NCBI RefSeq assembly: GCF_000702945.1
Contig: NZ_JNLE01000003.1
Span: forward strand, 310,001-374,000
Source of the DNA: Clostridium sp. KNHs205
GTDB lineage: Bacteria > Bacillota > Clostridia > Lachnospirales > Lachnospiraceae
Reading direction: 5' to 3'
Length of the DNA stretch: 64,000 nucleotides
Shown here: positions 10,651 to 39,795 of the stretch, piece by piece
How positions within the stretch are numbered: position 1 is the first letter of the stretch
Layout: each line of letters starts with the position of its first letter
Translations under genes and position numbers: made by a program
Notes under the pieces: generated by a model
What the model saw: only the letters and a program-made list of their open reading frames with translations
Database searches by the model: none
What the model was told of the DNA's origin: nothing

Positions 10651-10683
10651 TTTTGTGTATTTATATAATTTATCTAATTTATA

Positions 10684-10712
10684 ATGATAGTATAAAAGTT
10701 TTTAAATGTCAA
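10684..10712 (-). promoter_or_regulatory. Promoter of the T-box/ileS transcript
   Basis: TTGACA (10707-10712) and TATCAT (10684-10689) are separated by 17 bp on the minus strand and lie just upstream of stem I. Confidence 0.75.
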
Positions 10713-10783
10713 TTCCTTTTTTATGGATATCCATGGTGAGGGAATAAAGGATAACCCTGAAAATGTCCGATGATTTTGTATAA

Positions 10784-25350: not shown

Positions 25351-26427
25351 TTAGTTCAGGGTACCATGGAGGCAGTCAAGAAATCTCTTTCTGCCTTCTA
25401 ATTGCTCCCAGGTTCCAATAAGCTTCTGGATGTTTCTCTGTGGCACCCAGGATTTTTTACCATTATAATAAAAGTTGGTTATTTTCCAGAACTTTTCAGG
25501 ATAGAGGAGCAATATGTATAGAAGCTTTCTCTCATCCCTGTCAAGGGGTTGTATATCTGTATAGGTATTTAATATCATACTTCCAATATCAATATCCCAG
25601 TCATTTTTCTCAAGGCATTTACGAATATAAAAATACAAATCCGTACATTGTACCCCAATACAGGATTTATCAAAATTAGTCGTGGCCATCTCTGCCCGCG
25701 TCCTGTTCTTGATACCCGCAGCCGATATCAGATCTCTGCGAGGGGAGGAGGGTTTTAAACCGGATGAAAACTGCGCTGTATTTACCATGATAACATTATG
25801 ATAGGTGTAATTGCCATGGCAGACATAACGGTGTTCCTTGGCTTCCTCCATTAATTTACTGTAATTGCTGTCTATAAGGAGCCTTGTAGCTTCCTGAGCC
25901 TGCTCATAAAATTCATCATAACAATTGATATAGCATACTTCAAATTCATTTTTCTTTTTCTTTTCCCTGATATAACTTCTGACCCGCTTCAACTCCCGGT
26001 TTCTTTTATCAAAAAGCTCCAGGAGATCCGGTCCGGTATTTTTTGCAATCTGCTCCTCATTCAGAGGAACTTCCCTGAGCAGTCCGTGGAGCAACGCTAA
26101 GTTGGCGGCACCATTTGCTATGTCCGACTCATTCCTGAGATTACATTCATCTCCCGGAAACCAGTTCTTTAAGATGTACTTACTCCCAGCACCGTCCTCT
26201 GTTATAATCTCACCGGCATTATTGCGCATATATAAATCCACATAAGGGTAGTCGTTTAAATACTCCAGCAGGGTATACTCAAATTCCACCCTGTTTTTAG
26301 AACTTTCCAAGCTTTTCAACAGCTTGAGTCCCTTATCCGTCTCTGCTATAAATGCCCCCCTGATTCTGTATGTGTTATAAATCTTTATATTATATTGTCT
26401 AAATACTTCCAGATTTCTATCCTCCAT
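25351..26427 (-). CDS. CotS-like spore coat protein (degenerate kinase fold)
   Basis: The 358-residue protein has the CotS/YsxE plan: an N-terminal lobe with a short Lys-rich segment, YVDLYMRNNAGEIITEDG, then KYILKNWFPGDECNL, a helical middle, and a C-terminal lobe. The catalytic-loop position reads HGNYTYHNV instead of the family's HGDYxxHN, so the usual aspartate is Asn. About 26 residues (from SSGLKPSSPRRDL) are inserted between this loop and NFDKSCIGVQCTDLY. Both suggest a non-catalytic coat component. Homologues are mother-cell spore coat proteins. AGGAGGCTTTCCT precedes the ATG. The domain call is good; the coat location is inferred. Confidence 0.75.
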   Translation of the reverse strand: MEDRNLEVFRQYNIKIYNTYRIRGAFIAETDKGLKLLKSLESSKNRVEFEYTLLEYLNDYPYVDLYMRNNAGEIITEDGAGSKYILKNWFPGDECNLRNESDIANGAANLALLHGLLREVPLNEEQIAKNTGPDLLELFDKRNRELKRVRSYIREKKKKNEFEVCYINCYDEFYEQAQEATRLLIDSNYSKLMEEAKEHRYVCHGNYTYHNVIMVNTAQFSSGLKPSSPRRDLISAAGIKNRTRAEMATTNFDKSCIGVQCTDLYFYIRKCLEKNDWDIDIGSMILNTYTDIQPLDRDERKLLYILLLYPEKFWKITNFYYNGKKSWVPQRNIQKLIGTWEQLEGRKRFLDCLHGTLN

Positions 26428-26619
26428 AGGAAAGCCTCCTGACTCAAACTATTGCACCGCTCATAGGTGTCTCTTTTAATCCTATGATATAACGCAGGTT
26501 TTCATGACAGGAATCCTAAGGATTCTAAGAATATTTTACAGGGCTTTTTACTTTTGGTTCAACGAATTTTAGAGAATCTGAATATAATACTTTAAACTAT
26601 CCTGTTATGAATTATGAAT

Positions 26620-26697
26620 AGCTGGCTCCCCGGGGCAAGGCAGAACATTTGGTGCCCGCAGCTTGCCACGGGTCTTTACGTAACTGTGGGTTTTTTA
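26620..26697 (+). ncRNA. Candidate small structured RNA ending in a terminator
   Basis: A GC-rich island in an AT-rich gap downstream of cca on the plus strand. GGCAAG (26634-26639) can pair with CTTGCC (26662-26667), with CCCG/CGGG flanking. Alternatively GGGCA pairs with TGCCC (26653-26657) and CCACGG (26666-26671) pairs with CTGTGG (26684-26689) just before TTTTTT. The first pairing and the terminator stem share bases. A TATAAT at 26583-26588 could be a -10, but no good -35 was found. No plus-strand gene follows, so it would be a stand-alone transcript. Confidence 0.4.
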
Positions 26698-26726
26698 AAA
26701 GATCTTGGAAGTTTTATGAGTAATTT

Positions 26727-28037
26727 TTATGACCTTTTTAAAAATATCTCTTCAGCCATCAGGCTTAATTTTTCTTTCGTATTTAACTCCGGTTCCTTCA
26801 GAACAGATACTAGCAATTCTCCCAGAACCTGTCCCATGATTTTACCTGGTTTAAATCCAAGTTCTATAAGATCCTTTCCATTAATCATCAGTTCCTTTAA
26901 TTCAACACATTCTTTTTTTGAAAGGATATCATGGTATAACTCTCTGGCTGTATTTAAGTCTTCCCCTTTCCCCCCGGAAATACTACCTCTCTCCGTAAGA
27001 ATACACGCTTCTTTAACAAAGAACAGCATATCCATCAAGTCTTTACCAATGGCATTTACTGCCTTTCTCATTTCCCAGGGTGTAAGCAGGAACTCATAAT
27101 CACACCAGGTTAACAGCCGGTATACATAGTCAATGGTTTCATTGTCAAATTTTAGCCTTCTAAGTACTTCCCTGCCTTCTTCCGGTTTAAGACCCTGTAA
27201 CAATAAGGCCCAGGAAAGAATACTTGACTCTTTTTCTTTTCCCCTGACGGATGACAGCACCTGCTCTCTAAGTAACCTTATGCTTCGTAGGGAAAATGCT
27301 CCATAAGGCTCCTTCTGCTCCCGTAAGTTATGAGGTCGTGTCATAAGCACATTGAATTCCGGCAGGATTATTGCTGTAATTCCCAGTTCCCAGGCAGTCA
27401 GGAGCCTGTCCGGATTAGGTGATAACAGCAGCTTATTAAGCTCTGTCCTAATTCGTTCAGCACTTATATTTTTAAGATTTTCTGCCTTTATCTCCGCTGC
27501 ACTAAGAGTTCCTTTATCTATTTCAAAACCCAACTGCGCAGAAAAGCGAACCGCCCTGAGTATCCTTAAGGCATCCTCCTCAAAACGCATTTCGGCACTG
27601 CCTACACAGCGAATCCTCTGCTCCTCCAGATCTTTTAGCCCTTCAAATATATCGACAAGACCACTGTCTTCGTTATAAGCCATGGCATTTATGGTAAAAT
27701 CCCTTCTCATAAGATCTTCTGTGAGATAAGGTGTATAAGTAACCTCCCTTGGATGTCTGTTATCTTCATATTCTCCGTCAATACGGTAAGTTGTAACCTC
27801 ATAACCGTTCTTATCAAGCATAACGGTAACCGTTCCATGTATGATACCCGTATCTATTGTCCGCTTAAAAATCCCCTTAACCTGTAGGGGGCTTGCAGAG
27901 GTGGTTATATCCCAGTCCTCCGGCTCTCTGCCAAGTATTACATCCCTCACGCATCCGCCTACTGCATAGGCCTCATAACCATTCTTCTGCAATTCCTTTA
28001 TTATATAATCCACATCTTTTGGCAGCTGTATCCTCAT
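26727..28037 (-). CDS. cca: CCA tRNA nucleotidyltransferase (poly(A) polymerase family)
   Basis: It adds or repairs the CCA 3' end of tRNAs. The nucleotidyltransferase head has YAVGGCVRDVILGREPEDWDITTSA with the DxD carboxylates, then HGTVTVMLDKNGYEVTTYR, the RRDFTINAMAYN block and EEDALRILRAVRFSAQLGF of the RNA-binding neck. The length of 436 residues is normal for class II enzymes. Its ribosome site AGGAAGG and its promoter lie inside a terminator-like hairpin (see 28044-28095). Confidence 0.95.
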   Translation of the reverse strand: MRIQLPKDVDYIIKELQKNGYEAYAVGGCVRDVILGREPEDWDITTSASPLQVKGIFKRTIDTGIIHGTVTVMLDKNGYEVTTYRIDGEYEDNRHPREVTYTPYLTEDLMRRDFTINAMAYNEDSGLVDIFEGLKDLEEQRIRCVGSAEMRFEEDALRILRAVRFSAQLGFEIDKGTLSAAEIKAENLKNISAERIRTELNKLLLSPNPDRLLTAWELGITAIILPEFNVLMTRPHNLREQKEPYGAFSLRSIRLLREQVLSSVRGKEKESSILSWALLLQGLKPEEGREVLRRLKFDNETIDYVYRLLTWCDYEFLLTPWEMRKAVNAIGKDLMDMLFFVKEACILTERGSISGGKGEDLNTARELYHDILSKKECVELKELMINGKDLIELGFKPGKIMGQVLGELLVSVLKEPELNTKEKLSLMAEEIFLKRS

Positions 28038-28043
28038 AAAAAA

Positions 28044-28095
28044 ATCCTTCCTGACATTCTCTCTTTATTATAGCCGATGTCAGGAAGGATAACAA
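28044..28095 (-). promoter_or_regulatory. Terminator of the CPBP gene overlapping the cca promoter and ribosome site
   Basis: On the minus strand a perfect 14-bp stem (ATCCTTCCTGACAT, 28077-28090, with its complement at 28044-28057) is followed by TTTTTTT immediately before the cca ATG. The loop holds TATAAT (28067-28072), which is 17 bp from TTGTTA (28090-28095). A start there would skip the 5' arm and free the AGGAAGG site. Confidence 0.75.
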
Positions 28096-28109
28096 ATTTT
28101 TTTTAAGGT

Positions 28110-28991
28110 TTAATTATCATCATAGGAATCAATTAAATATACAGGTTCTTCCTCTTTGATGCTTTTTATTAATTTACCTGCATATACCAGGCTGGCAGTT
28201 ACTGCTGCTCCGGTAACAAGGAAAAGGATACTTACTGCAATGTAATTATTAAGTATTTGCTCCGGTAATATATAATCCAAAGTCATACCGGCGATATTCA
28301 CGGTCATATGCAGTAAAATAGCACCAATAAGTGAGTATGCCCGGCGAATCAACCCAAAACTAAGCCCCATTGCAAAAGCATATATTCCTTGTATCAGATT
28401 CATATGGTATATGCCGAACAGCAGCGCCTGAACAAAATTTGCAGCCAGGAAGGGCATATATTTTCTTGCTTTATTAAAGGTAACTCCTCTGAATATAAGT
28501 TCTTCTGCAATTGGTGCTACCAACCCTACATAAAGAAAGGATATAAAGGTATTACCCATCCCAAGGCTCTCTATTAATTCACCGTAACCATCAAACCAAT
28601 CGGGTCTGAGGTTTGATATTACTGTAAGTATAATAGAAAGGGAAATCTGTATACATACTCCCAGTATAAGAATCAGAACGATTCCTTTTGCATTGAGCTT
28701 ATTAGCCTTGACCAAAATATCCCCTGATTTCTTCTGTTTCTTAAGCCAGATACTAAAAACGACGATGTCAACAATTCCTATAGCTGCCGATATTCCCAAA
28801 AGTATTTGAGGATTTAGCGCTCCATTGGCAATATCCTGTATATTGTTTATATCCAGCGTACCCTGTGCTGACATCTGAATTCCCATCACAACACCATATA
28901 TAATCATTCCCCAAAAGGCTCCTACAATCTGCAAGGCCAGTGCCAGCAAAAAGGGGAAGGTAATGGTCAGATAATTACCTGTCTTCTTCAT
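28110..28991 (-). CDS. CPBP family intramembrane glutamic endopeptidase
   Basis: The 293-residue protein has about eight hydrophobic segments. The CPBP (CAAX protease and bacteriocin-processing) motifs are EELIFRG near residue 162, FGIYHMN near 194 and LLHMTVN later, giving the Glu-Glu-Arg, His and His/Asn set of the family. Members cleave within or near membranes and include bacteriocin self-immunity proteins. A bacteriocin-like exporter locus lies 1.3 kb upstream on the same strand, though nudC intervenes, so an immunity role is only a possibility. It is preceded by a small membrane protein gene 51 bp away. Confidence 0.88.
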   Translation of the reverse strand: MKKTGNYLTITFPFLLALALQIVGAFWGMIIYGVVMGIQMSAQGTLDINNIQDIANGALNPQILLGISAAIGIVDIVVFSIWLKKQKKSGDILVKANKLNAKGIVLILILGVCIQISLSIILTVISNLRPDWFDGYGELIESLGMGNTFISFLYVGLVAPIAEELIFRGVTFNKARKYMPFLAANFVQALLFGIYHMNLIQGIYAFAMGLSFGLIRRAYSLIGAILLHMTVNIAGMTLDYILPEQILNNYIAVSILFLVTGAAVTASLVYAGKLIKSIKEEEPVYLIDSYDDN

Positions 28992-29042
28992 GTTTACCTC
29001 TTTCTCAATATCAGATTTTGAGTGATATTCCTGTAAAATGTG

Positions 29043-29228
29043 TTATCTATGGGTAGGTTTTTTTAGTAATAAGAAAGCTGCTATAAGAAAAAAGCTGAAT
29101 GAAATTATATATCTTACAAATCCACCCTTCCACAGATTTAATAACCCAAATACTATATATACACCAGCGATTACCAAATGGGTATACTTCCAATTTTTTA
29201 TTTTGTCTAACATTTCAATAAATCCCAT
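29043..29228 (-). CDS. Small two-TM membrane protein
   Basis: This 61-residue protein has two hydrophobic segments (LVIAGVYIVFGLLNLW and IISFSFFLIAAFLLL) joined by a short loop with charged ends. CAGGAG seven bases upstream of the ATG supports translation. It lies between nudC and the CPBP gene on the same strand with gaps of about 40 and 51 bp, so the three probably form one operon. The function is unknown. The overlapping plus-strand frame lacks a ribosome site. Confidence 0.7.
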   Translation of the reverse strand: MGFIEMLDKIKNWKYTHLVIAGVYIVFGLLNLWKGGFVRYIISFSFFLIAAFLLLKKPTHR

Positions 29229-29268
29229 ATCATATCTCCTGACAATATAGATTTATATCAATAATCTC

Positions 29269-30108
29269 TTACTGCTTATGTTGATCTCTGTACCAGCGTA
29301 TCAATTTACCTGCCACGCTATCGGTTGAGGGTATATCCGGTAAATTATCGGCATTATACCAGCCTGCAGCAGTAATCTCCTCATTATCCACCGTAATATC
29401 TCCGCTTTCATATTCCGCTGTAAAAGCTGTCATAAGAGCATCCGGAAAAGGCCATGGCTGACTTCTGAAATAGCGTACATTTTTGACCTTAATGCCTACT
29501 TCTTCCTGTATTTCCCGTTCTACGGTCTGTTCAAGGGTCTCACCAGGTTCTACATATCCAGCAATCAGACTGTATCTGCCTTCTTTAAAATTACGGTTAT
29601 GTGCCAGCAATATCTGATCCCCTTTAAAGATTGCAGTAATAACTGCCGGTGATATTCTCGGGTAAACGATATTTTTGCAAATAGGACAGGTTCTCGCCCG
29701 TTCTCCTTCCTTCCTGATCATCTTATTGCCGCAGCGTCCACAGTATTGATTTATCCTGTTCCAGTGTAAGATATGATTCGCGGTTCCTGCCAGGATAAAT
29801 AATTCAGGATCACCGGAGCGTTCTGTTAATTCCATCAGATCAATGGATATAATATCACCATTATCCTCCGGCATTTCCGTAAGACCAAGACAATAGCATT
29901 CATGACTATCATATTTTCCAAGATATTCAGCTTCTTCATAATCTGTGATAAGCTTATCTAAATCTATCTTTTCAGGTATTAATACCTTTTCCCCGGTCTT
30001 CTTAACCAGCATTCTTTTTCCTGCTAACACCAATATCCATGCCTTATCCAGAGAAGTATCTGTGGGGTTAAAAGCAGGTATAAATTTCTGTTCGTCTCTA
30101 TTGCTCAT
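29269..30108 (-). CDS. nudC: NAD(+) diphosphatase / NADH pyrophosphatase (NudC type)
   Basis: It hydrolyses NAD(H) and in some bacteria removes NAD caps from RNA. The 279-residue protein has the NudC zinc ribbon YCGRCG...CPIC, then the Nudix box GYVEPGETLEQTVEREIQEE and, downstream, SQPWPFPDALM, the block that marks NADH pyrophosphatases (usually SQPWPFPxSLM). The N-terminal domain is of normal size. AAGAGATGAATCATA precedes the ATG. Nothing here regulates it visibly. Confidence 0.93.
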   Translation of the reverse strand: MSNRDEQKFIPAFNPTDTSLDKAWILVLAGKRMLVKKTGEKVLIPEKIDLDKLITDYEEAEYLGKYDSHECYCLGLTEMPEDNGDIISIDLMELTERSGDPELFILAGTANHILHWNRINQYCGRCGNKMIRKEGERARTCPICKNIVYPRISPAVITAIFKGDQILLAHNRNFKEGRYSLIAGYVEPGETLEQTVEREIQEEVGIKVKNVRYFRSQPWPFPDALMTAFTAEYESGDITVDNEEITAAGWYNADNLPDIPSTDSVAGKLIRWYRDQHKQ

Positions 30109-30193
30109 TATGATTCATCTCTTTCTTCTTAATTGTGTGCCTGTTATTAGAGTATAACATATTTTACCCAGTATATATAGAAGTTGTAACAGG

Positions 30194-30251
30194 TTTTATG
30201 CCTTTTCTATCTTAAAGTACAAACACAGGTACTTTTAAGTAAAAAAGGCAT
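30194..30251. repeat. Long AT-rich hairpin downstream of the exporter gene
   Basis: TTATGCCTTTT and AAAAGGCATAA, plus an inner GTAC-centred pairing, make an imperfect stem of about 25 bp with an 8-nt loop. It has no T-run on the minus strand, so it is not a textbook terminator, although it follows the exporter stop. Confidence 0.55.
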
Positions 30252-30305
30252 AAATAATATTTCTATATTTAGGTATCGGTATATTACAGATATAATAACA
30301 GCTGC

Positions 30306-32507
30306 TTATCCTGCCTGCTGTCTCCATAATACTGCATATTGTCCTTCTCTATCAATTAATGTCTGATGATTTCCATATTCAATAATTTTTCCTTTCTCCA
30401 TTACATAAATACGGTCACATCTTCTAATGGTGCTTAATCTATGAGCAATAATAATAGTTGTCATACCTTTACTGTATTCCTCAATGGTATTTTCTATTGC
30501 CCATTCTGTCATGGAATCCAGATTACTGGTGGCTTCGTCAAGAATCAGGATATCCGGCTTTCTTAATATAGCCCTGGCAATAGCTAACCGCTGTCTCTGA
30601 CCGCCGGAAAGGTTAGATCCATTCTCCTCCAGCCTAGTATTATACTGAAAAGGAAGTTCACTGATAAATTCATGTGCCTGTGCCTTTTTAGCTGCTTCCA
30701 TTACTTCTTCCGGAGTGATATCTTCTGATCCCATCGTCAGATTGTCCATAACACTGCCACTGAACAGAAAGGTTTCCTGAGGTATATAAGCAATACGATT
30801 ACGTAGTGCTTCAATCTGAATATCTTTTATATTATAACCGTCTATCAATATCTCTCCAGACTCCGGGCTATAAAGGTTTAATAATAATTTTGAGAGGGTT
30901 GTTTTACCGGAACCGCTTCCTCCAACCAAAGCTATCTTCTCACCCTGTCTTATATGTATGTTAACTCCTTCCAAAACTGGCTTTCTGGTTCCATATCGAA
31001 AGGTAATATTCTTAAATTGTATATCTCCTTTAAGATTTTGGAGATTTGTTTTGTTATCTTCCACATCGCTTTTTTCATATTCCAGGTCAAGTATCTCACC
31101 TAACCGTTCTGCTGCAACAATCGCCATTTGCATTTGTGGTTGAAGATTAATCAGGTTCTTCATTGGTTCAAGGAAATATGCCAGCAGAAAGTTAAAAGTA
31201 ATTAACTGTCCGGCAGAGATATTTCCTTTTATTACATTATAAGCCCCAACCCACAGAATGACAATGCCGCCTGTTAATTCGGTAAAACTTACCAGGGAGC
31301 CCTGGAGATTACTCACCCAGCCGAGTTTAAAAACACTTTTAAGGAGTTTTGTAAATTTTCTCTCTGTCTCAAGATCAAGTTTACTCTCGGCATTGTAAGC
31401 TTTTACTGTCTGTATACCGTTTAAGGATTCGACCATGTAGGAGGTCAGCTGTGCACTGTCTTCCATCTGGGTCTGGTTTAATTTCTTATACCATTTATTA
31501 AAACTCCATACTATAAAGAAGTATAAGACTACAACAACTGCAGTTACACCAAACATTTGGGCATTTTGCAGGTACAAAATAATACCGCCGGCTATTGCCA
31601 TCAGTGTATCTATCATAATGGTCAGTGTCGCACCTGATATGGCATCCCTGACCTTGGAAGCATCATTAAAACGAGAGATAATCTCTCCTACTTTTCTGTT
31701 GTCAAAAAAGTTCATCGGCAATTTGAGCACATGCCTGTAATAACCAAGCAGCAAGGCTATATCCAGTTTCTGGCTTAAATACATCATCATGTGAGATCGT
31801 AAAGCGGATAATATTACTTTAAATAAATTCAGAAAAATTACACCTAAAGAAAGCCTGTGAAGTGTTTTTAATAACCCCGATGGAAGCACTTCATCGATCA
31901 GTATTTTAAAATAAAAAGAAACAAGTATACCAAATGCAGTTATAAACAGGGAGGCTGTAAATACCTGCAACAGTAATTGTTTCTGTGGTAGAAACAGAGA
32001 AAAGAACCGTTTAAACAACCCCTTCGTCTCATCACCTTTTTCAAAGGCGGCCCCCGGTACCAATAGGATAAGAATTCCTGTCCACCTGTAAGCGGAGGAG
32101 TTTCCAATCCCATTCCCCTCTAACGGTATTTCTCCGAGGAACTCGTCGGGAGATAGCTTAATGATTCCTTTCCCTGGATCTGCTATAGTAATTTGTTTGG
32201 CAGTGATTTTATGTATTACTACATAGTGGAGCAAAGCTCCATCAGCAACTACATGTGCAATACAAGGTAAAGGAAACTCAGAGTAAAGTGAATTTCTGTC
32301 CCCTTTTACACCTTTTGCCGTAAAGCCTAGTTGCTTGGCTGCCTTTATCATGCCGTAAGCATTGGTTCCATGCCTGTCTGTTCCTGCAACTTCTCTTATC
32401 TTTGATATGGAGGTCTTAAATCCATATTGTCTTGAAATAGTCGCAAGGCAAGCTGCTCCGCAATCGGTTATGTCATGTTGTTTGACACAGTAGTATTTAT
32501 CAACCAT
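30306..32507 (-). CDS. Peptidase-containing ABC exporter (C39 bacteriocin/pheromone type)
   Basis: This 733-residue protein has three parts. Residues 1-135 are a C39 protease with Gln10, Cys16 (DITDCGAACLA), His94 and Asp110 (TIADPGKG), the complete catalytic set. Residues of roughly 160-440 form the six-helix export domain. The C-terminal ATPase has GGSGSGKTT (near 530), LSGGQRQRLAIARAIL (near 634) and ILDEATSNLD. Such exporters (PCAT1, ComA, LagD types) cut a leader after GG and export the core. The gene follows the GG-leader peptide gene by about 110 bp. GAGGT precedes the ATG. No accessory HlyD-like subunit is nearby, as is common for Gram-positive PCATs. Confidence 0.93.
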   Translation of the reverse strand: MVDKYYCVKQHDITDCGAACLATISRQYGFKTSISKIREVAGTDRHGTNAYGMIKAAKQLGFTAKGVKGDRNSLYSEFPLPCIAHVVADGALLHYVVIHKITAKQITIADPGKGIIKLSPDEFLGEIPLEGNGIGNSSAYRWTGILILLVPGAAFEKGDETKGLFKRFFSLFLPQKQLLLQVFTASLFITAFGILVSFYFKILIDEVLPSGLLKTLHRLSLGVIFLNLFKVILSALRSHMMMYLSQKLDIALLLGYYRHVLKLPMNFFDNRKVGEIISRFNDASKVRDAISGATLTIMIDTLMAIAGGIILYLQNAQMFGVTAVVVVLYFFIVWSFNKWYKKLNQTQMEDSAQLTSYMVESLNGIQTVKAYNAESKLDLETERKFTKLLKSVFKLGWVSNLQGSLVSFTELTGGIVILWVGAYNVIKGNISAGQLITFNFLLAYFLEPMKNLINLQPQMQMAIVAAERLGEILDLEYEKSDVEDNKTNLQNLKGDIQFKNITFRYGTRKPVLEGVNIHIRQGEKIALVGGSGSGKTTLSKLLLNLYSPESGEILIDGYNIKDIQIEALRNRIAYIPQETFLFSGSVMDNLTMGSEDITPEEVMEAAKKAQAHEFISELPFQYNTRLEENGSNLSGGQRQRLAIARAILRKPDILILDEATSNLDSMTEWAIENTIEEYSKGMTTIIIAHRLSTIRRCDRIYVMEKGKIIEYGNHQTLIDREGQYAVLWRQQAG

Positions 32508-32619
32508 TTTTTTACCTCATTCAGCTATGGCTTAAAATATTATTCTACTTTTATGAGTACTATGGAACCTGCTTTTTTCATTTGTACAGAGGATTTTCAA
32601 CAGATGGATATTTTTTTAC

Positions 32620-32769
32620 TTATGCCTTTACAATTCCTATGAATTTGTCATAAAGTTTTGTTATAATATCATTAAATATTGATAAACCGCCATCTACTTC
32701 CTCAAGTTCTGCCTGGTTTAATTCTTCCATTTTGCTATTTGAATATAAAGCTTGATTTGTGTTATCCAT
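32620..32769 (-). CDS. Double-glycine leader peptide (bacteriocin or pheromone precursor)
   Basis: With the start at 32769 (AAAGGAGGTCAGATAAT upstream), the product is 49 residues: a 28-residue leader containing MEELNQAELEEVDGG, the classic GG leader with hydrophobic residues at -4, -7 and -12, and a 21-residue core that starts LSIFNDIITKLYDK. The core has hydrophobic residues at 1, 3, 4, 7, 8, 11, 12, 15, 16, 18 and 19 and polar or charged ones between, an ideal amphipathic helix with a small net positive charge and no cysteine. It could be an antimicrobial peptide, a phenol-soluble-modulin-like peptide or the ligand of the neighbouring kinase. The open frame extends 11 codons upstream without a site. 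Confidence 0.85.
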   Translation of the reverse strand: MDNTNQALYSNSKMEELNQAELEEVDGGLSIFNDIITKLYDKFIGIVKA

Positions 32770-32828
32770 ATTATCTGACCTCCTTTGTAAGGAATTTATC
32801 ATTATTTGGAGAAATATACAATATAGAT

Positions 32829-32861
32829 GTGCTATTTGGTAGATTGGACGTGCTATTTGGT
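32829..32861. promoter_or_regulatory. LytTR-type operator: two identical 12-bp direct repeats 21 bp apart
   Basis: GTGCTATTTGGT occurs at 32829-32840 and 32850-32861, a two-helical-turn period typical of LytTR regulators. It lies between the peptide gene and the kinase gene. Read on the minus strand, an AT-rich -10 candidate (TATATT, 32813-32818) follows, so the peptide operon is the likely target. Confidence 0.7.
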
Positions 32862-32894
32862 TAAAAAATAATACTTTTACTGGGAGAGAATACG

Positions 32895-34214
32895 ATGAGA
32901 GAATTTACACTTACCTTTATAATAGATTTGGTAAATAATTTACTTCCTTTTTTAATCTTAGACATATTCAGCAATCATATATTAATACATAAATATTCTG
33001 ATAAGTATCATGGCAAAAGACTGTTTTATTTAATACCGGTTCAAATATTATTAGGCGCAGCGGTACAAAATGTTGTTTTATTTACCATCCTGCTCTTATT
33101 AAGTTACTATTTGTATGTACTATTTTTATATAAAGTCACCTTACGAAGTAGTGTGGCTTATGTTTTAAGATTTTTCCTGTTTTATTACGGGACTCTGGCC
33201 GCCTTTTATTTCATACTATCTTATATAATTGATTTCATACCTAACTCTACTTCCCTGTTAAGCAATCATTTTTACATCTATCTAAAGGGGATTTTATTAA
33301 ATGCAGTTATTTATATTCTCTCCAGTTTTTATTTAAACAGGCGGCGGCTGAAAGGACAAACTATTAACAACCCTTATAAAAGAAGTATATATTTTATAAT
33401 GGCCTTAATTATATTTGTATTGGGTTGTTTCATTATCTTCCTCTACACCCTGGATGCCTCTAAGAAAACCATGGAAAACATTGTTATGATTATATTTTTA
33501 ATCAATACACTAATGATTATAATGATACTTTCTATCTATGAGAAAATTATTGATTTTCTTCAGGATGCCGCAAGGCGTCAGATACAACAGCAAAAATATG
33601 AGATTACACAGAGTTATTATGATGAGCTCTCTGAAAAATCCAAGCAGCTATCATCACTCAGACATGATTTTAAGAATCATCTGGGTGTTATTGCCGGACG
33701 CCTGGAACAAAAGGATTATTCCAATGCTCTTGATTATCTTACCCATATAACATCACAGATTCAATCCGCTGGTGATCTTGTTATCACAAACAACACGACT
33801 GTTTCTGCCATACTTCAATCTAAAAAATCAGAATGTGAAAGAAAATGTATTACCTTTAGCTATACAGCTGCCTTTGAAAAAATACACAAATTATCAGACA
33901 TCCAAATAACGATAATATTAGGAAATATACTGGATAATGCAATTGAGGCTCTGGAAACGGATGAAATATTAAATAAATACCTTACTTTATCCATTTCACA
34001 GATTAATACCTACCTTGCTATTCAGTGTGAGAACCCGTATCTTATTGAACCCCAGGAAAAGAACGGATACCTGCTTACTACGAAAGAGGAGAAAGAATTT
34101 CATGGAATAGGACTTAAAAATATAGCAGAAATCTGTGATGCTCACAGCGGAGAAATACATTACAGCTTTGAAAATTCGGTATTTACCATTCGAATCCTGC
34201 TTCCGAACTATTAA
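32895..34214 (+). CDS. AgrC/ComD-like sensor histidine kinase
   Basis: About 215 N-terminal residues form six or so membrane helices. They are followed by a coiled linker and a GHKL ATPase domain. The phosphoacceptor motif SLRHDFKNHLGVIAGRL holds His257, the N box is LGNILDNAIEAL and the G box EFHGIGLKNIAEICD. This is the HPK10 class, whose members sense peptides. GGGAGAG precedes the ATG. The gene is divergent from the peptide gene and convergent with its presumed partner regulator. Their stop codons overlap in a single TTAA. The peptide ligand is inferred from proximity. Confidence 0.9.
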   Translation: MREFTLTFIIDLVNNLLPFLILDIFSNHILIHKYSDKYHGKRLFYLIPVQILLGAAVQNVVLFTILLLLSYYLYVLFLYKVTLRSSVAYVLRFFLFYYGTLAAFYFILSYIIDFIPNSTSLLSNHFYIYLKGILLNAVIYILSSFYLNRRRLKGQTINNPYKRSIYFIMALIIFVLGCFIIFLYTLDASKKTMENIVMIIFLINTLMIIMILSIYEKIIDFLQDAARRQIQQQKYEITQSYYDELSEKSKQLSSLRHDFKNHLGVIAGRLEQKDYSNALDYLTHITSQIQSAGDLVITNNTTVSAILQSKKSECERKCITFSYTAAFEKIHKLSDIQITIILGNILDNAIEALETDEILNKYLTLSISQINTYLAIQCENPYLIEPQEKNGYLLTTKEEKEFHGIGLKNIAEICDAHSGEIHYSFENSVFTIRILLPNY

Positions 34215-34966
34215 ATTGCCTGCTGGTTTAATTTATCGTATATTCGGGACATAAAGCGTTCCTTAAGCTCCTTATAATATTTTCTGCTGACAGGTACCTC
34301 CATGTAGTCTGCCAATACTACCATGTTCTTGCCGACCTCCAGAATCCTGTCAAAATTAACGATATACCCCTGATGCACATAAAAGAATTTATTAACATCC
34401 AGTCTCTCATATATTTGAGATAACGTCTCATAGCAGGCATACTCATTATCTGTAGTGTGTATAATGCTGGTATTGCGTTTCTTTTCAATATATTTTATTT
34501 TAGATATCTCTATATGGACTTCGTTGTTCTTTATTTTTACTTCCAGGTATCTTTTTCTGGCACTGATTTTATCTCTCATAAAATCTATGGAAGCCGTAGC
34601 TATACCCATGACTTTCTTAAGCTTTATATAATCCACCGGTTTCACAAGATAATTCAGTGCATTGACTTCAAATGCACCTAAGGCATAGTTTTCAAAACTT
34701 GTGGCAAAAATAATTATTACATTCTCATCTGCTTTCCTTATGCTTGCAGCCGTTTCAAGTCCGGTAAGGCCATTCATCTCCACATCTAGTATCAGAATAT
34801 GGTATACCGCTGTTTCATAATCTTTAAGCAAATCCTCTCCCCTGCTGAATCTGCATAACTCAAGTTTATTTCCACTTTCATTTTCATAAGCTTTCAAAAG
34901 ATTGCACAGTTCTTCCTGGTAATAACTTTCATCGTCACATACTGCAATCCTGTAATGATTAGACAT
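34211..34966 (-). CDS. LytTR-family response regulator (AgrA/ComE-like)
   Basis: The 251-residue protein has a receiver domain with Asp11, Asp12 and the phosphoacceptor Asp61 (ILILDVEMNG), FATS and YLVKP, then a LytTR DNA-binding domain near residues 140-245 (KIKYIEKKRNTSIIHT, FFYVHQGYIVNFDRI, VPVSRKYYKELKERF). Such regulators bind pairs of short direct repeats about 21 bp apart. Two such pairs occur at this locus, one upstream of this gene. Its coding strand is opposite to the kinase's, an uncommon layout for a two-component pair. Confidence 0.92.
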   Translation of the reverse strand: MSNHYRIAVCDDESYYQEELCNLLKAYENESGNKLELCRFSRGEDLLKDYETAVYHILILDVEMNGLTGLETAASIRKADENVIIIFATSFENYALGAFEVNALNYLVKPVDYIKLKKVMGIATASIDFMRDKISARKRYLEVKIKNNEVHIEISKIKYIEKKRNTSIIHTTDNEYACYETLSQIYERLDVNKFFYVHQGYIVNFDRILEVGKNMVVLADYMEVPVSRKYYKELKERFMSRIYDKLNQQAI

Positions 34967-34978
34967 ATTCTCTCCCCT

Positions 34979-35023
34979 TTAATTTTGATTGCTATCTTAA
35001 TTTTGATTGTTATTTTAATTTTA
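34979..35023. repeat. Short tandem repeat in the regulator gene leader
   Basis: TTAATTTTGATTG plus TAT occurs twice with an 18-bp period and a third partial copy, upstream of the response regulator start. Confidence 0.6.
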
Positions 35024-35053
35024 CTCAGCTTAACTTGATTTATCAACTATTAT

Positions 35054-35086
35054 GTGCTGTTTGGCGTTAAGGACGTGGTAATCAGT
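35054..35086. promoter_or_regulatory. Second LytTR-type operator upstream of the response regulator
   Basis: GTGCTGTTTGGC (from 35054) and GTGGTAATCAGT (from 35075) repeat with the same 21-bp period. The 33-bp element matches the operator at 32829-32861 at 22 of 33 positions by my alignment, including ACGTGC/ACGTGG and TTTGG. Orientation relative to the minus-strand gene is the same. A weak -10 lies just beyond. Confidence 0.6.
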
Positions 35087-35175
35087 TAATAAAATGGGAA
35101 GAAACGGTGAAAACTGTTTTACAGGTATCATTTCACCTAGTTAAATTATATTTTAAAAAATTTAATTTTACCCTA

Positions 35176-35204
35176 TTGACATTATTACTAGTTAGTAGTA
35201 TATT
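35176..35204 (+). promoter_or_regulatory. Promoter and probable operator of marR
   Basis: TTGACA (35176-35181), 17 bp, TATATT (35199-35204). The spacer holds a perfect inverted repeat, TACTA-GT-TAGTA (35186-35197), well placed for autorepression. The expected start of transcription falls on or next to the ATG at 35211. Confidence 0.75.
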
Positions 35205-35210
35205 ATAGCC

Positions 35211-35657
35211 ATGGAAAATAAATTACAAATTAATCCACAAACAGATTTAAACATACACACCCTGAGGGCATTAAGCAGATGCAGTCAGTCAATCCACAAG
35301 CAGGAGCTTACAGTAATTAAGAGCAGCGGACTCACAGCCTCACAGTTTGAAGTTCTGGAAGTACTGTTTCATCTCGGTGATCTTAGAATTAGCGATATCA
35401 TTGAGAAGATACTTGCTACCGGTGGCAATATGACTGTGGTCATTGATAACCTGGCCAAGGATGGACTGGTACAGCAGTGTACGGATCTACAGGATAAGAG
35501 AGTTAAGCTTATCCGGATTACAGAAAAGGGGAAAGCCTTAATGGAGGATTTATTACCCCGACACTTAGAAAGTATAAATGCAATATTTCAGGTACTTACG
35601 GAAGAAGAAAAGCTTTACCTTAGTAAGCTCTTAAATAAACTTACACCTGTGCCATAG
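35211..35657 (+). CDS. MarR family transcriptional regulator
   Basis: The 148-residue winged-helix protein has the MarR core: GLTASQFEVLEVLFHLGDLRISDIIEKI, the recognition region LATGGNMTVVIDNLAKDGLV and the wing CTDLQDKRVKLIRITEKGKAL. It probably represses itself and the nitroreductase gene 148 bp downstream. No ribosome site is visible upstream of the ATG, which lies seven bases after the -10 box, so the mRNA is probably leaderless. Such MarR-nitroreductase pairs often answer to oxidants or quinone-like compounds. Confidence 0.9.
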   Translation: MENKLQINPQTDLNIHTLRALSRCSQSIHKQELTVIKSSGLTASQFEVLEVLFHLGDLRISDIIEKILATGGNMTVVIDNLAKDGLVQQCTDLQDKRVKLIRITEKGKALMEDLLPRHLESINAIFQVLTEEEKLYLSKLLNKLTPVP

Positions 35658-35805
35658 GTACACCTTTAACAGTGATAGTACGAACTAATACTATCAGGAA
35701 AGACCCTTATTTCTGAAAACTATTCAGAATACTTCTAAAGCAAGCACATACAGGGTATATTAAGAACATCTAAAATAAAATATTATGTATTCAGGAGGAT
35801 CCACC

Positions 35806-36408
35806 ATGAAGAATTTCAACGAAGCAATCGCAGACAGAAGAACCGTATACGCCTTTAGCAAAGAATCACCTGTTTCTGATGATAAAATCAAAGATCTTGT
35901 AGAGCACGCAGTAAAGCATTCTCCCTCTGCCTTTAATTCACAAAGCGGTAAAGTTGTATTATTATTCGGTAAGGAACATGATAAACTTTGGGATATTACA
36001 CTGGAAGCATTAAGAAAGGTAGTTCCTGCAGACAGCTTTGCACCTACAGAAGAAAAAATCGCATCCTTTAAAGCAGGCCATGGTACAGTATTATTTTTTG
36101 ATGACAATGGTATCGTTGAATATCTGCAGAAGGAATATTCTCTTTATAAAGATAACTTCCCGGTATGGGCACAACAATCCAGCGGTATGCTTCAGCTGAT
36201 AGTATGGACCGGCTTGGAAAACGAAGGTCTTGGTGCTTCTCTTCAGCATTACAATGAGCTTATAGAAGCAGAGGTAAAAAAAGCCTGGAATGTGCCGGAG
36301 TCTTATAAGCTGATTGCTCAGATGCCTTTTGGCAAACCCACTGCAGCACCTGGTGAGAAGGCATTTACTCCTTTGGAAGACCGCATTAGTGTATTTGGAA
36401 TAGCATAA
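35806..36408 (+). CDS. Nitroreductase family protein (Frm2-like)
   Basis: The protein of 200 residues starts MKNFNEAIADRRTVYAFSKE. Further family blocks are AFNSQSGKVVLLFGKEHDKLWDI and SSGMLQLIVWTGLENEGLGASLQHYN, features of the FMN-dependent nitroreductase subgroup related to fungal Frm2/Hbn1. It probably reduces nitro compounds or quinones with NAD(P)H. The start at 35806 has AGGAGGATCCACC; the open frame begins seven codons earlier. It sits just downstream of marR and is likely its target. The substrate cannot be read from sequence. Confidence 0.85.
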   Translation: MKNFNEAIADRRTVYAFSKESPVSDDKIKDLVEHAVKHSPSAFNSQSGKVVLLFGKEHDKLWDITLEALRKVVPADSFAPTEEKIASFKAGHGTVLFFDDNGIVEYLQKEYSLYKDNFPVWAQQSSGMLQLIVWTGLENEGLGASLQHYNELIEAEVKKAWNVPESYKLIAQMPFGKPTAAPGEKAFTPLEDRISVFGIA

Positions 36409-36650
36409 AGATCAGCAATAACGAAAGGGAGTAACGGTTTTCAGCTATTTTAAGTGAATGATTTTTATAACATATAATTTTGTGTAATTTAAGAATTTGA
36501 GTAATTTAAGAAAGATATAAAGCCGTTATAAACTTTCGATTGTATAAAGGAACAGAAAAGGCCCACCCCCTCAGGTTCTGACTGTTCCATTGATAAGGAG
36601 GCAGGATAAACCTGACCTCCTTATCTAAAGTTATAACCTGAAAATAATAA
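36409..36650. other. Gap with two hairpins
   Basis: GGAACAG/CTGTTCC (36549-36588) and a strong stem, GATAAGGAGG/CCTCCTTATC with inner CAGG/CCTG (36592-36625), lie between the nitroreductase and the shared terminator. Neither ends in a T-run. They could be part of the nitroreductase 3' UTR or a small RNA. Confidence 0.4.
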
Positions 36651-36694
36651 AACAAGGTTAACAGATACTATTCTCCTGATAACCTTGTTTTTTA
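36651..36694. terminator. Bidirectional terminator at the end of proS
   Basis: AACAAGGTTA pairs with TAACCTTGTT and is followed by TTTTT on the plus strand and a T-rich tail on the minus strand. Confidence 0.85.
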
Positions 36695-36735
36695 TTATAC
36701 TATAAACTGTAATGCCTTTCTTACGTCAATTCTAA

Positions 36736-38169
36736 TTAATATGCTTTCCCCCAGTACACCATTGACTTTGCTTTCTTGCCACAGCATACACAGGTATCAG
36801 CTATTTCTTCCTGTTTAAAAGGCATACATCTGGAAGTAGCACCTGTCTCTTCTTTAATGGTATCCTCACAGGCTTTATCTCCGCACCACATTGCCTTTAT
36901 GAACCCGGGCTTTGTAGCTACCACCTCTTTAAACTCTTCGAACTCAGTTGCCTGATAGGTATGGGCATCTCTGTGTTCTCTGGCTCTTTCAAGCATTTCC
37001 TTCTGGATTACATCAAGCACCTTCTCAACCTCATTCTCAAGGTTATCAAGAGCTACAACGATTTTTTCTCTGGTATCACGGCGTACGATAACTGCCTGAT
37101 TCTCCTCGATATCCTTAGGTCCGATCTCTATACGGATAGGGATTCCTCTCATCTCCTGCTCACTGAATTTCCAGCCGGGACTCTTATCTGTATCATCAAC
37201 CTTTACGCGGAAAGCACCAAGGCGTCCTTTCAGTTCAGCTGCTTTTTCAAGGACACCCTCTTTATGCTGCGCAATGGGAACGATCATTACCTGAACAGGT
37301 GCAACTCTGGGCGGAAGAACAAGACCGCTGTTATCTCCATGAACCATGATAACCGCACCAATCAGTCTGGTGGTCATACCCCAGGAGGTCTGATGCACAT
37401 ACTGAAGCTTGTTGTCTTTATCGGTATATTGAATATCAAAAGCATGTGCAAATCCATCTCCAAAGTTATGGCTGGTTCCGGATTGAAGTGCCTTGCCATC
37501 ATGCATTAAAGCTTCAATGGTATAGGTATCCTTTGCACCTGCGAATTTCTCTTTATCTGTCTTCTTTCCTCTGACCATGGGAATGGCCAGGACCTCTTCA
37601 CAGAAGTCTGCATAGAGATTTAACATCTGTATGGTCCTCTCCTCAGCTTCCTCTGCTGTAGCATGAGCCGTATGCCCCTCCTGCCACAAGAATTCCACTG
37701 AACGCAGGAAAGGTCTTGTGGTTTTCTCCCAACGTACAACAGAACACCACTGGTTATATACCTTTGGCAGATCCCTGTAGGACTGAATAATATTGGAGTA
37801 ATGATCACAGAAAAGTGTCTCGGAAGTAGGTCTTACGCACATTCTCTCCTGCAAAGGTTCCAGACCTCCGTGTGTAACCCAGGCAACCTCCGGTGCAAAG
37901 CCCTCAACATGATCCTTCTCTTTCTGCAGCAGACTCTCGGGAATAAACATAGGCATATAAACATTCTCTACCCCTGTCTCCTTAAATCTACTGTCCAGCT
38001 CCTTCTGAATGTTCTCCCAGATGGCATAGCCGCCGGGTCTTAAAATCATACATCCTCTTACACTGGAATAATCGATTAATTCTGCTTTCTTAACTACATC
38101 TGTGTACCACTGGGCAAAATCCTCTTCCATGGAGGTTATTGCTTCAACCAGTTTCTTTTCCTTCGCCAT
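36736..38169 (-). CDS. proS: Prolyl-tRNA synthetase, archaeal/eukaryote-like type
   Basis: The 477-residue enzyme charges tRNA-Pro. Class II motifs include [18 protein letters not shown] (motif 2 region) and [19 protein letters not shown] (motif 3). There is no INS editing domain. The C-terminal extension carries cysteines ([17 protein letters not shown]) and ends in Tyr, as in the eukaryote/archaeal-like class common in clostridia. AAAGGAG precedes the ATG. A T-box with a proline specifier controls it. Confidence 0.96.
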
Positions 38170-38249
38170 AGCGATTTCTCCTTTCAGAACAATTGTTTAT
38201 AAACTAACGTTTATAAGGAGGAGACATATTTACTCTGCAAAAAAGCAAT

Positions 38250-38468
38250 AAAAAAAGTCCTTCCTCCACAAGGGACCGAAAGACCTCGGCGGTACCACCC
38301 TAATTAACTGTAAACAGTTCACTTTAACACCGCTAACGCCGGTTCTACGCCGTATTTTCATACAGTGCTCCAAGGTAGGTTCTATAAAGTTATCCTGAGA
38401 ATCTCACACCAAGCTATTCTCTCTCTGGGAGGATAACATCTATATACTATTCCTCTTCATTGCTTTGT
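38250..38468 (-). promoter_or_regulatory. T-box riboswitch controlling proS (proline specifier)
   Basis: The minus strand reads GAAGAGGAATAGTA, the stem I core with CAGAGAGAGAATAGC, a specifier loop GAACCTACC with CCT (38377-38379), a proline codon followed by A, the canonical T-box AGGGTGGTACCGCC (38288-38301), and a terminator (38250-38276) with GTCC/GGAC pairing and TTTTTTT. Confidence 0.95.
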
Positions 38469-38474
38469 ATTATG

Positions 38475-38503
38475 ATTTTATGCCACCTCACAGCCTTTGT
38501 CAA
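38475..38503 (-). promoter_or_regulatory. Promoter of the T-box/proS transcript
   Basis: TTGACA (38498-38503) and TAAAAT (38475-38480) with 17-bp spacing on the minus strand, directly upstream of stem I. Confidence 0.8.
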
Positions 38504-38597
38504 CTTCTTTTTTCAGCTTTAAAGCATTCCCCTCTTTGATTCAACATTACATAAGATATTCCATAAATACCTCATCACCGATTACTATCAATACCCC

Positions 38598-39644
38598 TTA
38601 ACTTAACCGGTTCTGTGCTTCCTTAACCACTGTAATGATTATTACCAGACCTACAGGTCCAAGAATAAATCCGGGTATGCCAAATATTTTGAGCCCTGCA
38701 TACATGGCCATCATAGTATACACAGGTTTAATTCCAATACTGTTTCCCAGCAATTTAGGCTCCACCGTCTGACGCAGGACCTGACAGCTTACATAAGCTG
38801 TCAGCAGCACTGCCGCAGTTAAAAAGTCTTGCTGAAATAAGCTGATAACAGTCCAGGGTATCAGGATCATTCCGCTGCCCAGGATAGGGAAAGCATCCAC
38901 TACACCTATTCCTATTCCTACGAGCAATGCATATTTATTTCCAATGAGCAGCATAGCAGCCGTACTTACGATGGAAATTAAGAGCATCATAATTCCCTGG
39001 GTCTTTAAGTAAGCAACTCCCATACCTGAAAGTTTTGAAGTTACCAGGTGAATCTCATTGTAATAAGCAGAACTCCTTATTCCGCTTTTATATTTATCCT
39101 CATCTTTGATTAAAAGCAGGATGCTTACTATCATAATTAATAAAATTCCCACAAAACCTGCTATTCCAATAAGAAGATTGATACTTCTGGTAGTTATGAC
39201 AGGCATAATTTTATTTTTTATAATTACTAGCACTCCATCGAAATTAGTATATATAAAGTTCTGAACTGTCCCTAATTTGATTCCGAAAAATTTATCACAT
39301 CCCCTGCAAAAGTCGTCTAAATATCCGGAAAGTATCGCTAAATAGATAGGGAAATTCTTAAGCAACGCGACAAACTGTTTAATCAGTATATCACACAGAT
39401 AGAATAAACCCATGCCGCCAAGTGCACCCAACAGGCTTAAGGAAAGAATCCCGCCAAGAAGTTTTGGAAGTCTGGTTTTACGGTTTAAAAATTTTACGAA
39501 AGGCAGCAGACCTGATGCTACCAGATAAGCCAGAATAAATGGCGCAAAGAGAGGCAGCACATACTCAAGACCGATATAAACACCAAACACTGTAAGTATG
39601 ATTATAATGGACATTTTCACCTTGCTGTTGTTTAGAATTTCCAT
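38598..39644 (-). CDS. ytvI: AI-2E/PerM-type transporter family protein, YtvI-like
   Basis: The 348-residue protein has about eight membrane helices arranged as in the AI-2E exporter family, including the GIGIGVVDAFPILGSGMILIPW region and GLKIFGIPGFILGPVGLVI, which are family signatures. In B. subtilis YtvI is a sporulation membrane protein of this group. With spoIIR, sipL and cotS genes in the window, a sporulation role is plausible, but the substrate is unknown. GGGAGG precedes the ATG. Confidence 0.8.
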   Translation of the reverse strand: MEILNNSKVKMSIIIILTVFGVYIGLEYVLPLFAPFILAYLVASGLLPFVKFLNRKTRLPKLLGGILSLSLLGALGGMGLFYLCDILIKQFVALLKNFPIYLAILSGYLDDFCRGCDKFFGIKLGTVQNFIYTNFDGVLVIIKNKIMPVITTRSINLLIGIAGFVGILLIMIVSILLLIKDEDKYKSGIRSSAYYNEIHLVTSKLSGMGVAYLKTQGIMMLLISIVSTAAMLLIGNKYALLVGIGIGVVDAFPILGSGMILIPWTVISLFQQDFLTAAVLLTAYVSCQVLRQTVEPKLLGNSIGIKPVYTMMAMYAGLKIFGIPGFILGPVGLVIIITVVKEAQNRLS

Positions 39645-39694
39645 AAAAACCTCCCTTCTTTCCTTAACCGAATTGGATATAGTTTAGATATGAA

Positions 39695-39740
39695 TAAAAA
39701 AACAGATAATAAAACAAAGATTTCTTTGTTTTATTATCTG
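39695..39740 (-). terminator. Strong terminator of the cytidylate-kinase-like gene
   Basis: An 18-bp perfect palindromic stem (CAGATAATAAAACAAAGA and complement, centre TT) is followed by TTTTTTT on the minus strand. Confidence 0.88.
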
Positions 39741-39795
39741 CTGAAATTAAGTTTGTATGTTAGGTTATTATTGCATCAATTTCAAAAGAATGGGT

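What the first reader, a model, noticed from the sequence alone, without database searches (positions are those of the whole stretch)
30306..35086. Self-contained peptide export and sensing locus with an AgrC/LytTR pair
The sequence shows a C39 peptidase-ABC exporter with a full Cys/His/Asp set, a 49-residue GG-leader peptide, a polytopic GHKL kinase and a LytTR regulator within about 5 kb. Related operators, each a pair of half-sites 21 bp apart, lie upstream of the peptide and of the regulator. Established knowledge: such sets form pheromone or bacteriocin circuits (Com, Blp, Agr). Inference: the peptide is exported, sensed by the kinase, and the regulator activates peptide and regulator genes. 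Unusual points are that kinase and regulator are on opposite strands and converge, and that no immunity gene is adjacent (a CPBP protease is 1.3 kb away).
Basis: partly seen in the sequence, partly recalled or inferred. Interest (0 to 1): 0.78.

Follow-up and report, generated by a model that had tools for sequence, protein, structure and literature searches.

The report
Pheromone circuit without its bacteriocins
A bacterium carries a complete set of genes to export, sense and amplify its own peptide signal, of the type that usually switches on bacteriocin genes, but the bacteriocin genes that some relatives keep beside it are missing here, so the circuit seems to control only itself.

Summary
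Confirmed: C39-ABC exporter, 49-aa double-glycine peptide, GHKL kinase, REC-LytTR regulator, two operators with half-sites 21 bp apart. This is a GG-pheromone three-component circuit of the Com/Blp/Pln kind, not Agr. It recurs, whole or in part, in other Anaerocolumna and in four further genera of the family; peptide-kinase divergence (8 of 8 loci) and kinase-regulator convergence (8 of 9) are lineage traits, not oddities. Relatives keep GG bacteriocin-like peptides, immunity-like genes and/or an HlyD accessory beside the exporter; the window and its sister G014 keep none. G012 has 6 kb at the very junction that is bare in the window. An operator profile finds only the two local sites in the 6.36-Mb genome (plus one partial match at E 0.005; 150 of 4443 candidates were scored); HlyD is not found; the exporter is the only C39 protein found. 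Yet exporter, kinase and regulator are under purifying selection between window and G014 (dN/dS 0.055-0.099). Most likely an intact self-amplifying pheromone loop that outlived, or never had, bacteriocin cargo. Its benefit is unknown: the peptide may be the product, or the regulator has targets the profile misses. Nothing was tested at the bench.

The parts
30306..32507 (-). C39 peptidase-containing ABC exporter, 733 aa; C16/H94/D110, Walker A motif at 529, LSGGQ at 633
   Evidence: only PF03412 match at E <= 0.001 in G000
32620..32769 (-). double-glycine pheromone precursor, 49 aa, predicted 21-aa core LSIFNDIITKLYDKFIGIVKA
   Evidence: G014 orthologue differs by one core residue
32793..32862 (-). 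operator and promoter of peptide (and probably exporter): two half-sites ACCAAATAGCAC 21 bp apart, then TTGTAT-N17-TAAATT
32895..34214 (+). polytopic GHKL sensor kinase, 439 aa; LRHDFKNH at 255, GNILDNAIEA at 343, GIGLKN at 404
34211..34966 (-). response regulator REC + LytTR, 251 aa; LDVEM at 60
   Evidence: the only one of 7 PDB matches that spans both domains is ComE 4cbv
35018..35087 (-). operator and promoter of regulator: degenerate distal half-site, proximal CCAAACAGCAC, then TTGATA-N17-TAAAAT
   Evidence: promoter pair also listed
30109..30305 (.). exporter-NUDIX spacer: the place where G012 has about 6 kb with two GG peptides, HlyD and a TolC-like ORF

Best explanation
A GG-pheromone three-component quorum-sensing circuit. 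The C39 domain cuts the precursor after Gly-Gly and the exporter releases a 21-aa amphipathic peptide (inferred); the kinase senses it (inferred); the phosphorylated LytTR regulator binds paired half-sites directly upstream of the -35 box and activates peptide-exporter and its own gene (inferred from operator geometry). In the window lineage the block of bacteriocin-like, immunity-like and accessory genes that relatives carry behind the exporter is absent (shown), so the only targets detected are the circuit's own two promoters (shown within the sensitivity of the profile). Exporter, kinase and regulator are under purifying selection (shown), so the loop most likely still works, as signal only or with the peptide itself as the product (inferred).
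For: Domains and catalytic residues. Leader residues fit published recognition positions -4/-7/-12/-15 (passages of PMC7018657; passages of PMC6363468). Operator-to-promoter geometry: TTG invariant in 20 of 20 aligned sites (sites beyond the first 12 were found with an ungapped matrix, which favours constant spacing). Same promoter plan as PlnC/PlnD: 9-bp repeats, 12-bp spacer, upstream of -35 (passages of PMC2714321). In relatives the operator precedes pheromone, exporter, regulator, GG peptides and HlyD. R1 in 14 whole genomes: G000 2 clear sites + 1 partial (E 0.005), G014 2 + 1 partial, G012 3 + 1 partial, G010 4 + 2 weaker, G004 2, G022 2, G396 5, G227 4, G231 5; of five genus members without an orthologous circuit, G002, G006, G008, G011 0 and G009 1 (E 1.5e-4). 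At E <= 1e-6, 5 of 397 family genomes have it, all among the 6 whose regulator match exceeds 170 bits. No HlyD relative in G000 and G014, one each in G012, G010, G004. dN/dS window/G014: exporter 0.099, kinase 0.089, regulator 0.055; six flanking genes 0.025-0.124.
Against: No expression, binding or peptide data. Peptide dN/dS is 0.377 on 8 changes, weak evidence of constraint; the stretch upstream of the regulator is only 201 of 279 aligned columns identical to G014. G010 and G004 also show no GG bacteriocin at the locus, so lack of one is not special to the window; lack of HlyD and immunity-like genes is, within the genus. PF10439 is an insensitive probe (G012 peptide only E 0.037, and 8 of 14 control genomes ring at E <= 1), so unlinked bacteriocins are not excluded. 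R1 scored 150 of 4443 candidates in G000. Whether the window/G014 lineage lost the block or G012 gained it is not settled.
Confidence: 0.75

Rival explanations
1. A regulated bacteriocin system whose bacteriocin genes lie elsewhere in this genome under the same regulator.
For: G004 and G231 have operator sites on other contigs than the circuit; BlpC of S. thermophilus acts outside its own cluster (abstract of PMC10826417).
Against: Two local sites only above noise in G000 and in G014. Sites of 29 bits at the circuits of G396 and G227 were recovered, while G000 has nothing between 19.6 and 47.3 bits. The best PF10439 match in G000 is the pheromone leader itself, E 0.18, not significant.
Confidence: 0.15
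2. A decaying remnant of a bacteriocin locus that no longer works.
For: The block is missing at a clean junction, and parts of such loci are broken elsewhere: peptide in G012, exporter in G022.
Against: No stop inside peptide, exporter, kinase or regulator in window or G014; dN/dS far below 1 for the three proteins; peptide-kinase spacer with the operator 121 of 125 identical.
Confidence: 0.12
3. The core peptide is itself a bacteriocin or membrane-active product as well as a pheromone, as known for plantaricin A (recalled; only listings seen).
For: The core is amphipathic (moment 0.47; 220 of 20000 shuffles reach it), charge +1; cores of G010 and G004 are too (32 and 3 of 5000).
Against: Cores of G022, G396 and G227 are not amphipathic by this measure; no immunity-like gene beside it; it holds the pheromone position of loci that have separate GG peptides.
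Confidence: 0.2
4. An Agr-type system.
For: GHKL kinase and LytTR regulator.
Against: GG precursor and C39 exporter; no AgrB- or AgrD-type product among the 9 proteins scanned; other ORFs of 26000-40000 judged by eye only.
Confidence: 0.02

Closest known systems
Plantaricin regulon (PlnA-PlnB-PlnC-PlnD) and carnobacterial CS-CbnK-CbnR
   Same: Peptide inducer, kinase, regulator; paired tandem repeats 21 bp apart just upstream of -35 in pln (passages of PMC2714321; three-component logic from the abstract of PMC1634752)
   Different: Half-site ACCAAATAGCAC here, TACGTTAAT there; the kinase is on the strand opposite to peptide and regulator; no bacteriocin operon detected under the operator in the window genome
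Pneumococcal blp and com
   Same: GG pheromone exported by C39-ABC transporters; ComE is the only PDB match that spans both regulator domains; natural 'cheater' strains have lost part of blp (passages of PMC4739721)
   Different: Cheaters lose exporter function and keep immunity; here exporter, pheromone and sensor are kept and the bacteriocin side is missing. No HlyD-type partner found in the genome; that ComB/BlpB are HlyD-like is recalled
4ry2 exporter ('ABC-type bacteriocin transporter'; PCAT1 is its recalled name)
   Same: Best PDB match, 817 bits over residues 3-731
   Different: No regulatory circuit was compared
LahT of Lachnospiraceae bacterium C6A11
   Same: C39 exporter protease domain; leader residues Val-4, Leu-7, Leu-12 sit in its pockets (passages of PMC6363468) and are the same here
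   Different: LahT serves a lanthipeptide cluster; no modification enzyme was recognised in this locus

Membership tests
Com/Blp/Pln-type GG-pheromone three-component system | Small precursor with GG leader, hydrophobic residues at -4, -7, -12, -15 | tested here: met
   V-4, L-7, L-12, M-15 (sequence; positions from passages of PMC7018657). Family models match only below cut-off
Com/Blp/Pln-type GG-pheromone three-component system | C39 peptidase ABC exporter | tested here: met
   TIGR01193 over cut-off; triad
Com/Blp/Pln-type GG-pheromone three-component system | Polytopic GHKL kinase (HPK10 class; class name recalled) | tested here: met
   PF14501 and PF14689 over cut-off; about six hydrophobic segments
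Com/Blp/Pln-type GG-pheromone three-component system | REC-LytTR regulator | tested here: met
   PF00072 and PF04397 over cut-off; ComE 4cbv
Com/Blp/Pln-type GG-pheromone three-component system | Paired direct repeats about 21 bp apart next to -35 of regulated promoters | tested here: met
   published plan
Com/Blp/Pln-type GG-pheromone three-component system | The peptide induces its own promoter through kinase and regulator | not testable with these tools
   needs an experiment
Regulated class II bacteriocin locus | GG bacteriocin and immunity genes under the operator | tested here: not met
   Loose GG scan of 26000-38000 gave 6 ORFs, of which only the pheromone has a GG leader by my reading; same for G014. 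Present in G012, G022, G396, G227. Unlinked bacteriocins not excluded
Regulated class II bacteriocin locus | HlyD-like accessory protein | tested here: not met
   0 matches at E <= 0.001 in G000 and G014 (also 0 in G022), 1 each in G012, G010, G004
Agr system | AgrB protease and AgrD precursor beside the kinase | tested here: not met
   none among the 9 proteins scanned; remaining ORFs by eye

The most novel reading that the evidence does not exclude
A bacteriocin-free pheromone loop kept by selection: export, sensing and self-activation persist in at least two species with the circuit's own two promoters as its only targets, so that the secreted peptide, or the sensed state itself, is the selected trait rather than bacteriocin production.
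Probability: 0.35. Interest if true: 0.65.

Novelty: new variant of a known kind. Interest (0 to 1): 0.47.

Why it matters
Bacteriocin-linked peptide quorum sensing is best known from lactic acid bacteria and streptococci (recalled; the papers seen here are on those). This locus shows the same logic with its own operator in Lachnospiraceae, where exporter, sensor and targets are visibly modular: GG peptides in some genera, Sec-type secreted proteins in one, and only the circuit itself in the window and G014. A natural circuit without cargo makes it testable whether such loops have value apart from killing.

Tried and rejected
Rejected: Agr reading (GG peptide, C39 exporter). Rejected: the 60-aa in-frame version of the peptide starting at 32802, because that start lies upstream of the inferred -10 box (32793-32798). 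Rejected: the neighbouring CPBP gene as a cognate immunity gene, because in G009, which lacks the circuit, CPBP and CCA stand beside MarR (L142). Rejected: the third R1 match in G000 (E 0.005, positions 28-61 only) as noise; genus members without the circuit give up to 24.2 bits (G009).

Led nowhere: one search used a wrong spacer and gave only chance-like matches (18 against 5 for the control reading). The CPBP and NtrR rows, for both genome pairs, were out of frame; they are dropped and replaced. NCBIfam and PF10439 do not call the peptide over cut-off. No PDB match for the kinase at E <= 0.01. Alignment A2 of leaders was made but not used for a search. The regulator of G413 scores 189 bits, but no match to exporter, kinase or operator lies in the 18 kb read around it. 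Papers: 'Anaerocolumna' with 'bacteriocin' listed 8 papers, none on such a locus by title; passages of PMC13289728 on rumen bacteriocins hold no 'pheromone', 'LytTR' or 'Anaerocolumna'. Structure prediction was not used.
Full report
What is there. On the minus strand lie a 733-aa C39-ABC exporter (30306-32507) and, 112 bp upstream of it, a 49-aa GG peptide (32620-32769). On the plus strand, divergent from the peptide, lies a 439-aa GHKL kinase (32895-34214). The regulator (34211-34966, minus) converges on the kinase with a 4-bp overlap. The exporter has C16/H94/D110 and aligns over its length with 4ry2. The leader carries M/L/L/V at -15/-12/-7/-4, the positions that published work gives for recognition by such exporters (passages of PMC7018657; of PMC6363468). 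Of 7 PDB matches of the regulator only ComE spans both domains.

Operators. Each operator is two half-sites 21 bp apart; the proximal one stands at a fixed distance from a TTG that starts a -35 box, followed after 17 bp by a -10-like box (12 sites, 20 sites, TTG invariant in 20 of 20). I found the first sites by eye and the rest with an ungapped matrix, so constant spacing in the later ones is partly built in. To lessen circularity I built a matrix only from 9 sites of other genera: in the window it ranks the two reported operators first and second (46.6, 22.3), the next place scores 1.1, and 40 random 64-kb sequences do not exceed 11.8. Those 9 sites had been found with a matrix that included Anaerocolumna sites, so independence is partial. 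The plan is that of PlnC/PlnD promoters (passages of PMC2714321) with another half-site sequence.

Relatives. The genus is taken as Anaerocolumna because the G012 contig has the length of JAQSXJ010000038.1, titled Anaerocolumna sp., and G012 shares the window's genus label. Kinase matches of 41% identity or more over nearly the whole length are in 5 of the 15 genus genomes, the window included: G000, G014 (91%), G012 (87%), G010 (58%), G004 (41%). More distant loci were read in G022, G396, G227 and G231. Peptide and kinase are divergent in 8 of 8 loci where the peptide is in view (the G231 contig ends first). Kinase and regulator converge in 8 of 9 (G396 is the exception; in G004 only the end of the regulator is on the contig). 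An operator precedes the regulator, or in G227 a two-gene set ending in it, in 8 of 8 loci where that stretch is in view. The sensor part of the kinase is less conserved than the rest against G010 (48% against 77% and 64%) and G004 (31% against 59% and 49%), as expected if it tracks a changing peptide; against G014 it is not (93% against 93% and 86%), where the core differs by one residue only.

Specificity of the operator. Profile R1, built from these loci, hits 5 of 397 family genomes at E <= 1e-6: G000, G022, G227, G231, G396. These are 5 of the 6 genomes whose regulator match exceeds 170 bits; for the sixth, G413, no exporter, kinase or operator match lies in the 18 kb read around it. Because R1 was trained on these five genomes among others, the positive half is circular; the 392 silent genomes and the extra sites on other contigs of G231 and G004 are not. 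Against it: G009, without the circuit, gives one match at E 1.5e-4, and G004's extra site has no reading frame behind it. Both searches score only part of their first-look candidates (150 a genome, 12).

The missing block. Between exporter and NUDIX, G012 has two GG peptides of 81 and 79 aa with glycine-rich cores (L058 11418-11663 and 11685-11924; the second matches PF10439 at 23.5 bits, below the 27.1 cut-off), two further ORFs, a 620-aa HlyD protein and a 460-aa ORF that I call TolC-like (no Pfam match). Homology of window and G012 stops at the exporter stop codon and resumes about 195 bp before NUDIX; G014 has the same bare junction. G010 and G004 have HlyD and the TolC-like ORF behind the exporter, and G010 also two CPBP-type genes, which I read as immunity-like; no GG bacteriocin was found there. 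No relative of G012's HlyD was found in the whole of G000 and G014; matches of 30% identity in G396 and G227 show that such distance is within reach. G009, without the circuit, has proS, nitroreductase, MarR, CPBP and CCA together, i.e. an empty site, so the circuit sits as an island between MarR and NUDIX/CPBP.

Loss or gain. G012's exporter is closer to G010's (89.8%) than to the window's (82.0%), while its kinase and regulator are closer to the window's (87.0% and 96.8%) than to G010's (56.8% and 76.9%); exporter dS window/G012 is 1.64, against 0.17-0.52 for kinase, regulator, MarR, proS, NUDIX, CPBP and nitroreductase. Yet the exporter tree still puts G012 with the window, at 85/89 support, which speaks against a simple transfer from G010's own branch. 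G012's peptide gene departs from the window's at the GG, and a second operator stands before its exporter. So G012 probably exchanged its exporter side. Loss of the block in the window/G014 ancestor is the simplest reading, since G010 and G004 have HlyD in place; loss in the ancestor of all three with re-acquisition by G012 fits as well. Either way the bare state is shared by two species.

Still selected. Between window and G014: exporter dN/dS 0.099, kinase 0.089, regulator 0.055, against 0.025-0.124 for six flanking genes (proS, MarR, NUDIX, permease; CPBP and nitroreductase, their rows being out of frame and dropped). No stop inside any. The peptide differs by 3 synonymous and 5 replacement changes (0.377); its core has one replacement and no synonymous change in 13 sites. 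Identity to G014 is 121 of 125 columns for the peptide-kinase spacer, 106 of 113 for the peptide-exporter spacer and 201 of 279 upstream of the regulator.

No other targets seen. R1 in G000 gives the two local sites (58.5 and 47.3 bits) and one partial match of 19.6 bits (E 0.005); G014 likewise. Sites of 29 bits at the circuits of G396 and G227 were recovered, so a comparable site in G000 should have been seen; a site of another build would not. The exporter is the only PF03412 match at E <= 0.001 in G000 and in G014. PF10439 finds nothing better in G000 than the pheromone's own leader (E 0.18), but is a weak probe: the G012 peptide reaches only E 0.037 and 8 of 14 control genomes ring at E <= 1. 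The assembly is 97.9% complete with 7.5% contamination, so absences are not proofs.

How it most likely works. Shown: gene set, open frames, operator geometry, selection on three proteins, absence of the block. Inferred: cleavage after GG, export, sensing, phosphotransfer, activation of peptide-exporter and regulator. The peptide operator leaves 33 bp to the kinase start codon, so a bound regulator may also touch kinase transcription; a promoter-like plus-strand match at 32845-32872 overlaps it, but such matches are near background (29 found, 21.9 expected, sd 4.3). With nothing else detected under the operator, the peptide or the state of the loop should be the output, unless the regulator has unrecognised targets.

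Standing. By its parts it belongs with the Com/Blp/Pln/Cbn kind and not with Agr. It differs from the known cases compared here in strand layout, operator sequence and, in the window lineage, absence of cargo. Pneumococcal cheaters (passages of PMC4739721) are the nearest natural analogue I saw, with the opposite half lost. My paper searches listed nothing recognisable by title or abstract start as this locus or operator; the library holds open-licence papers only, and I saw listings, abstracts or passages, no whole paper.

Noticed in passing
L058 (G012) 8149-8300: Pheromone gene departs from the window's at the double glycine (LEG in place of GG, short unrelated tail) while its operator is kept; a second operator stands before the exporter.
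   Followed up: partly
L061 (G022) about 10470-11290: The exporter frame ends at about residue 275 (window numbering) and another reading frame follows, while pheromone, kinase, regulator and a GG bacteriocin-like peptide remain: resembles exporter-defective blp cheaters.
   Followed up: partly
L114 5638-5702 and 7051-7114, L115 3666-3724 (G231): The same operator stands on other contigs before Sec-type secreted proteins (one with LRR_5, one with a sub-threshold subtilase match), not GG peptides.
   Followed up: partly
L113 (G004) 5302-5370: A strong operator match (46.5 bits) on another contig with no obvious reading frame behind it.
   Followed up: partly
L118 (G010) 4823-4869: Partial operator match (positions 24-70) before a 54-aa hydrophobic ORF far from the locus, perhaps an unlinked immunity gene.
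   Followed up: no
window 29043-29228: 61-aa hydrophobic ORF between NUDIX and CPBP genes, kept in G014 (79%) and G012 (72%), with no Pfam or NCBIfam match.
   Followed up: no
L142 (G009): Empty site: proS, nitroreductase, MarR, CPBP and CCA contiguous without the circuit.
   Followed up: yes
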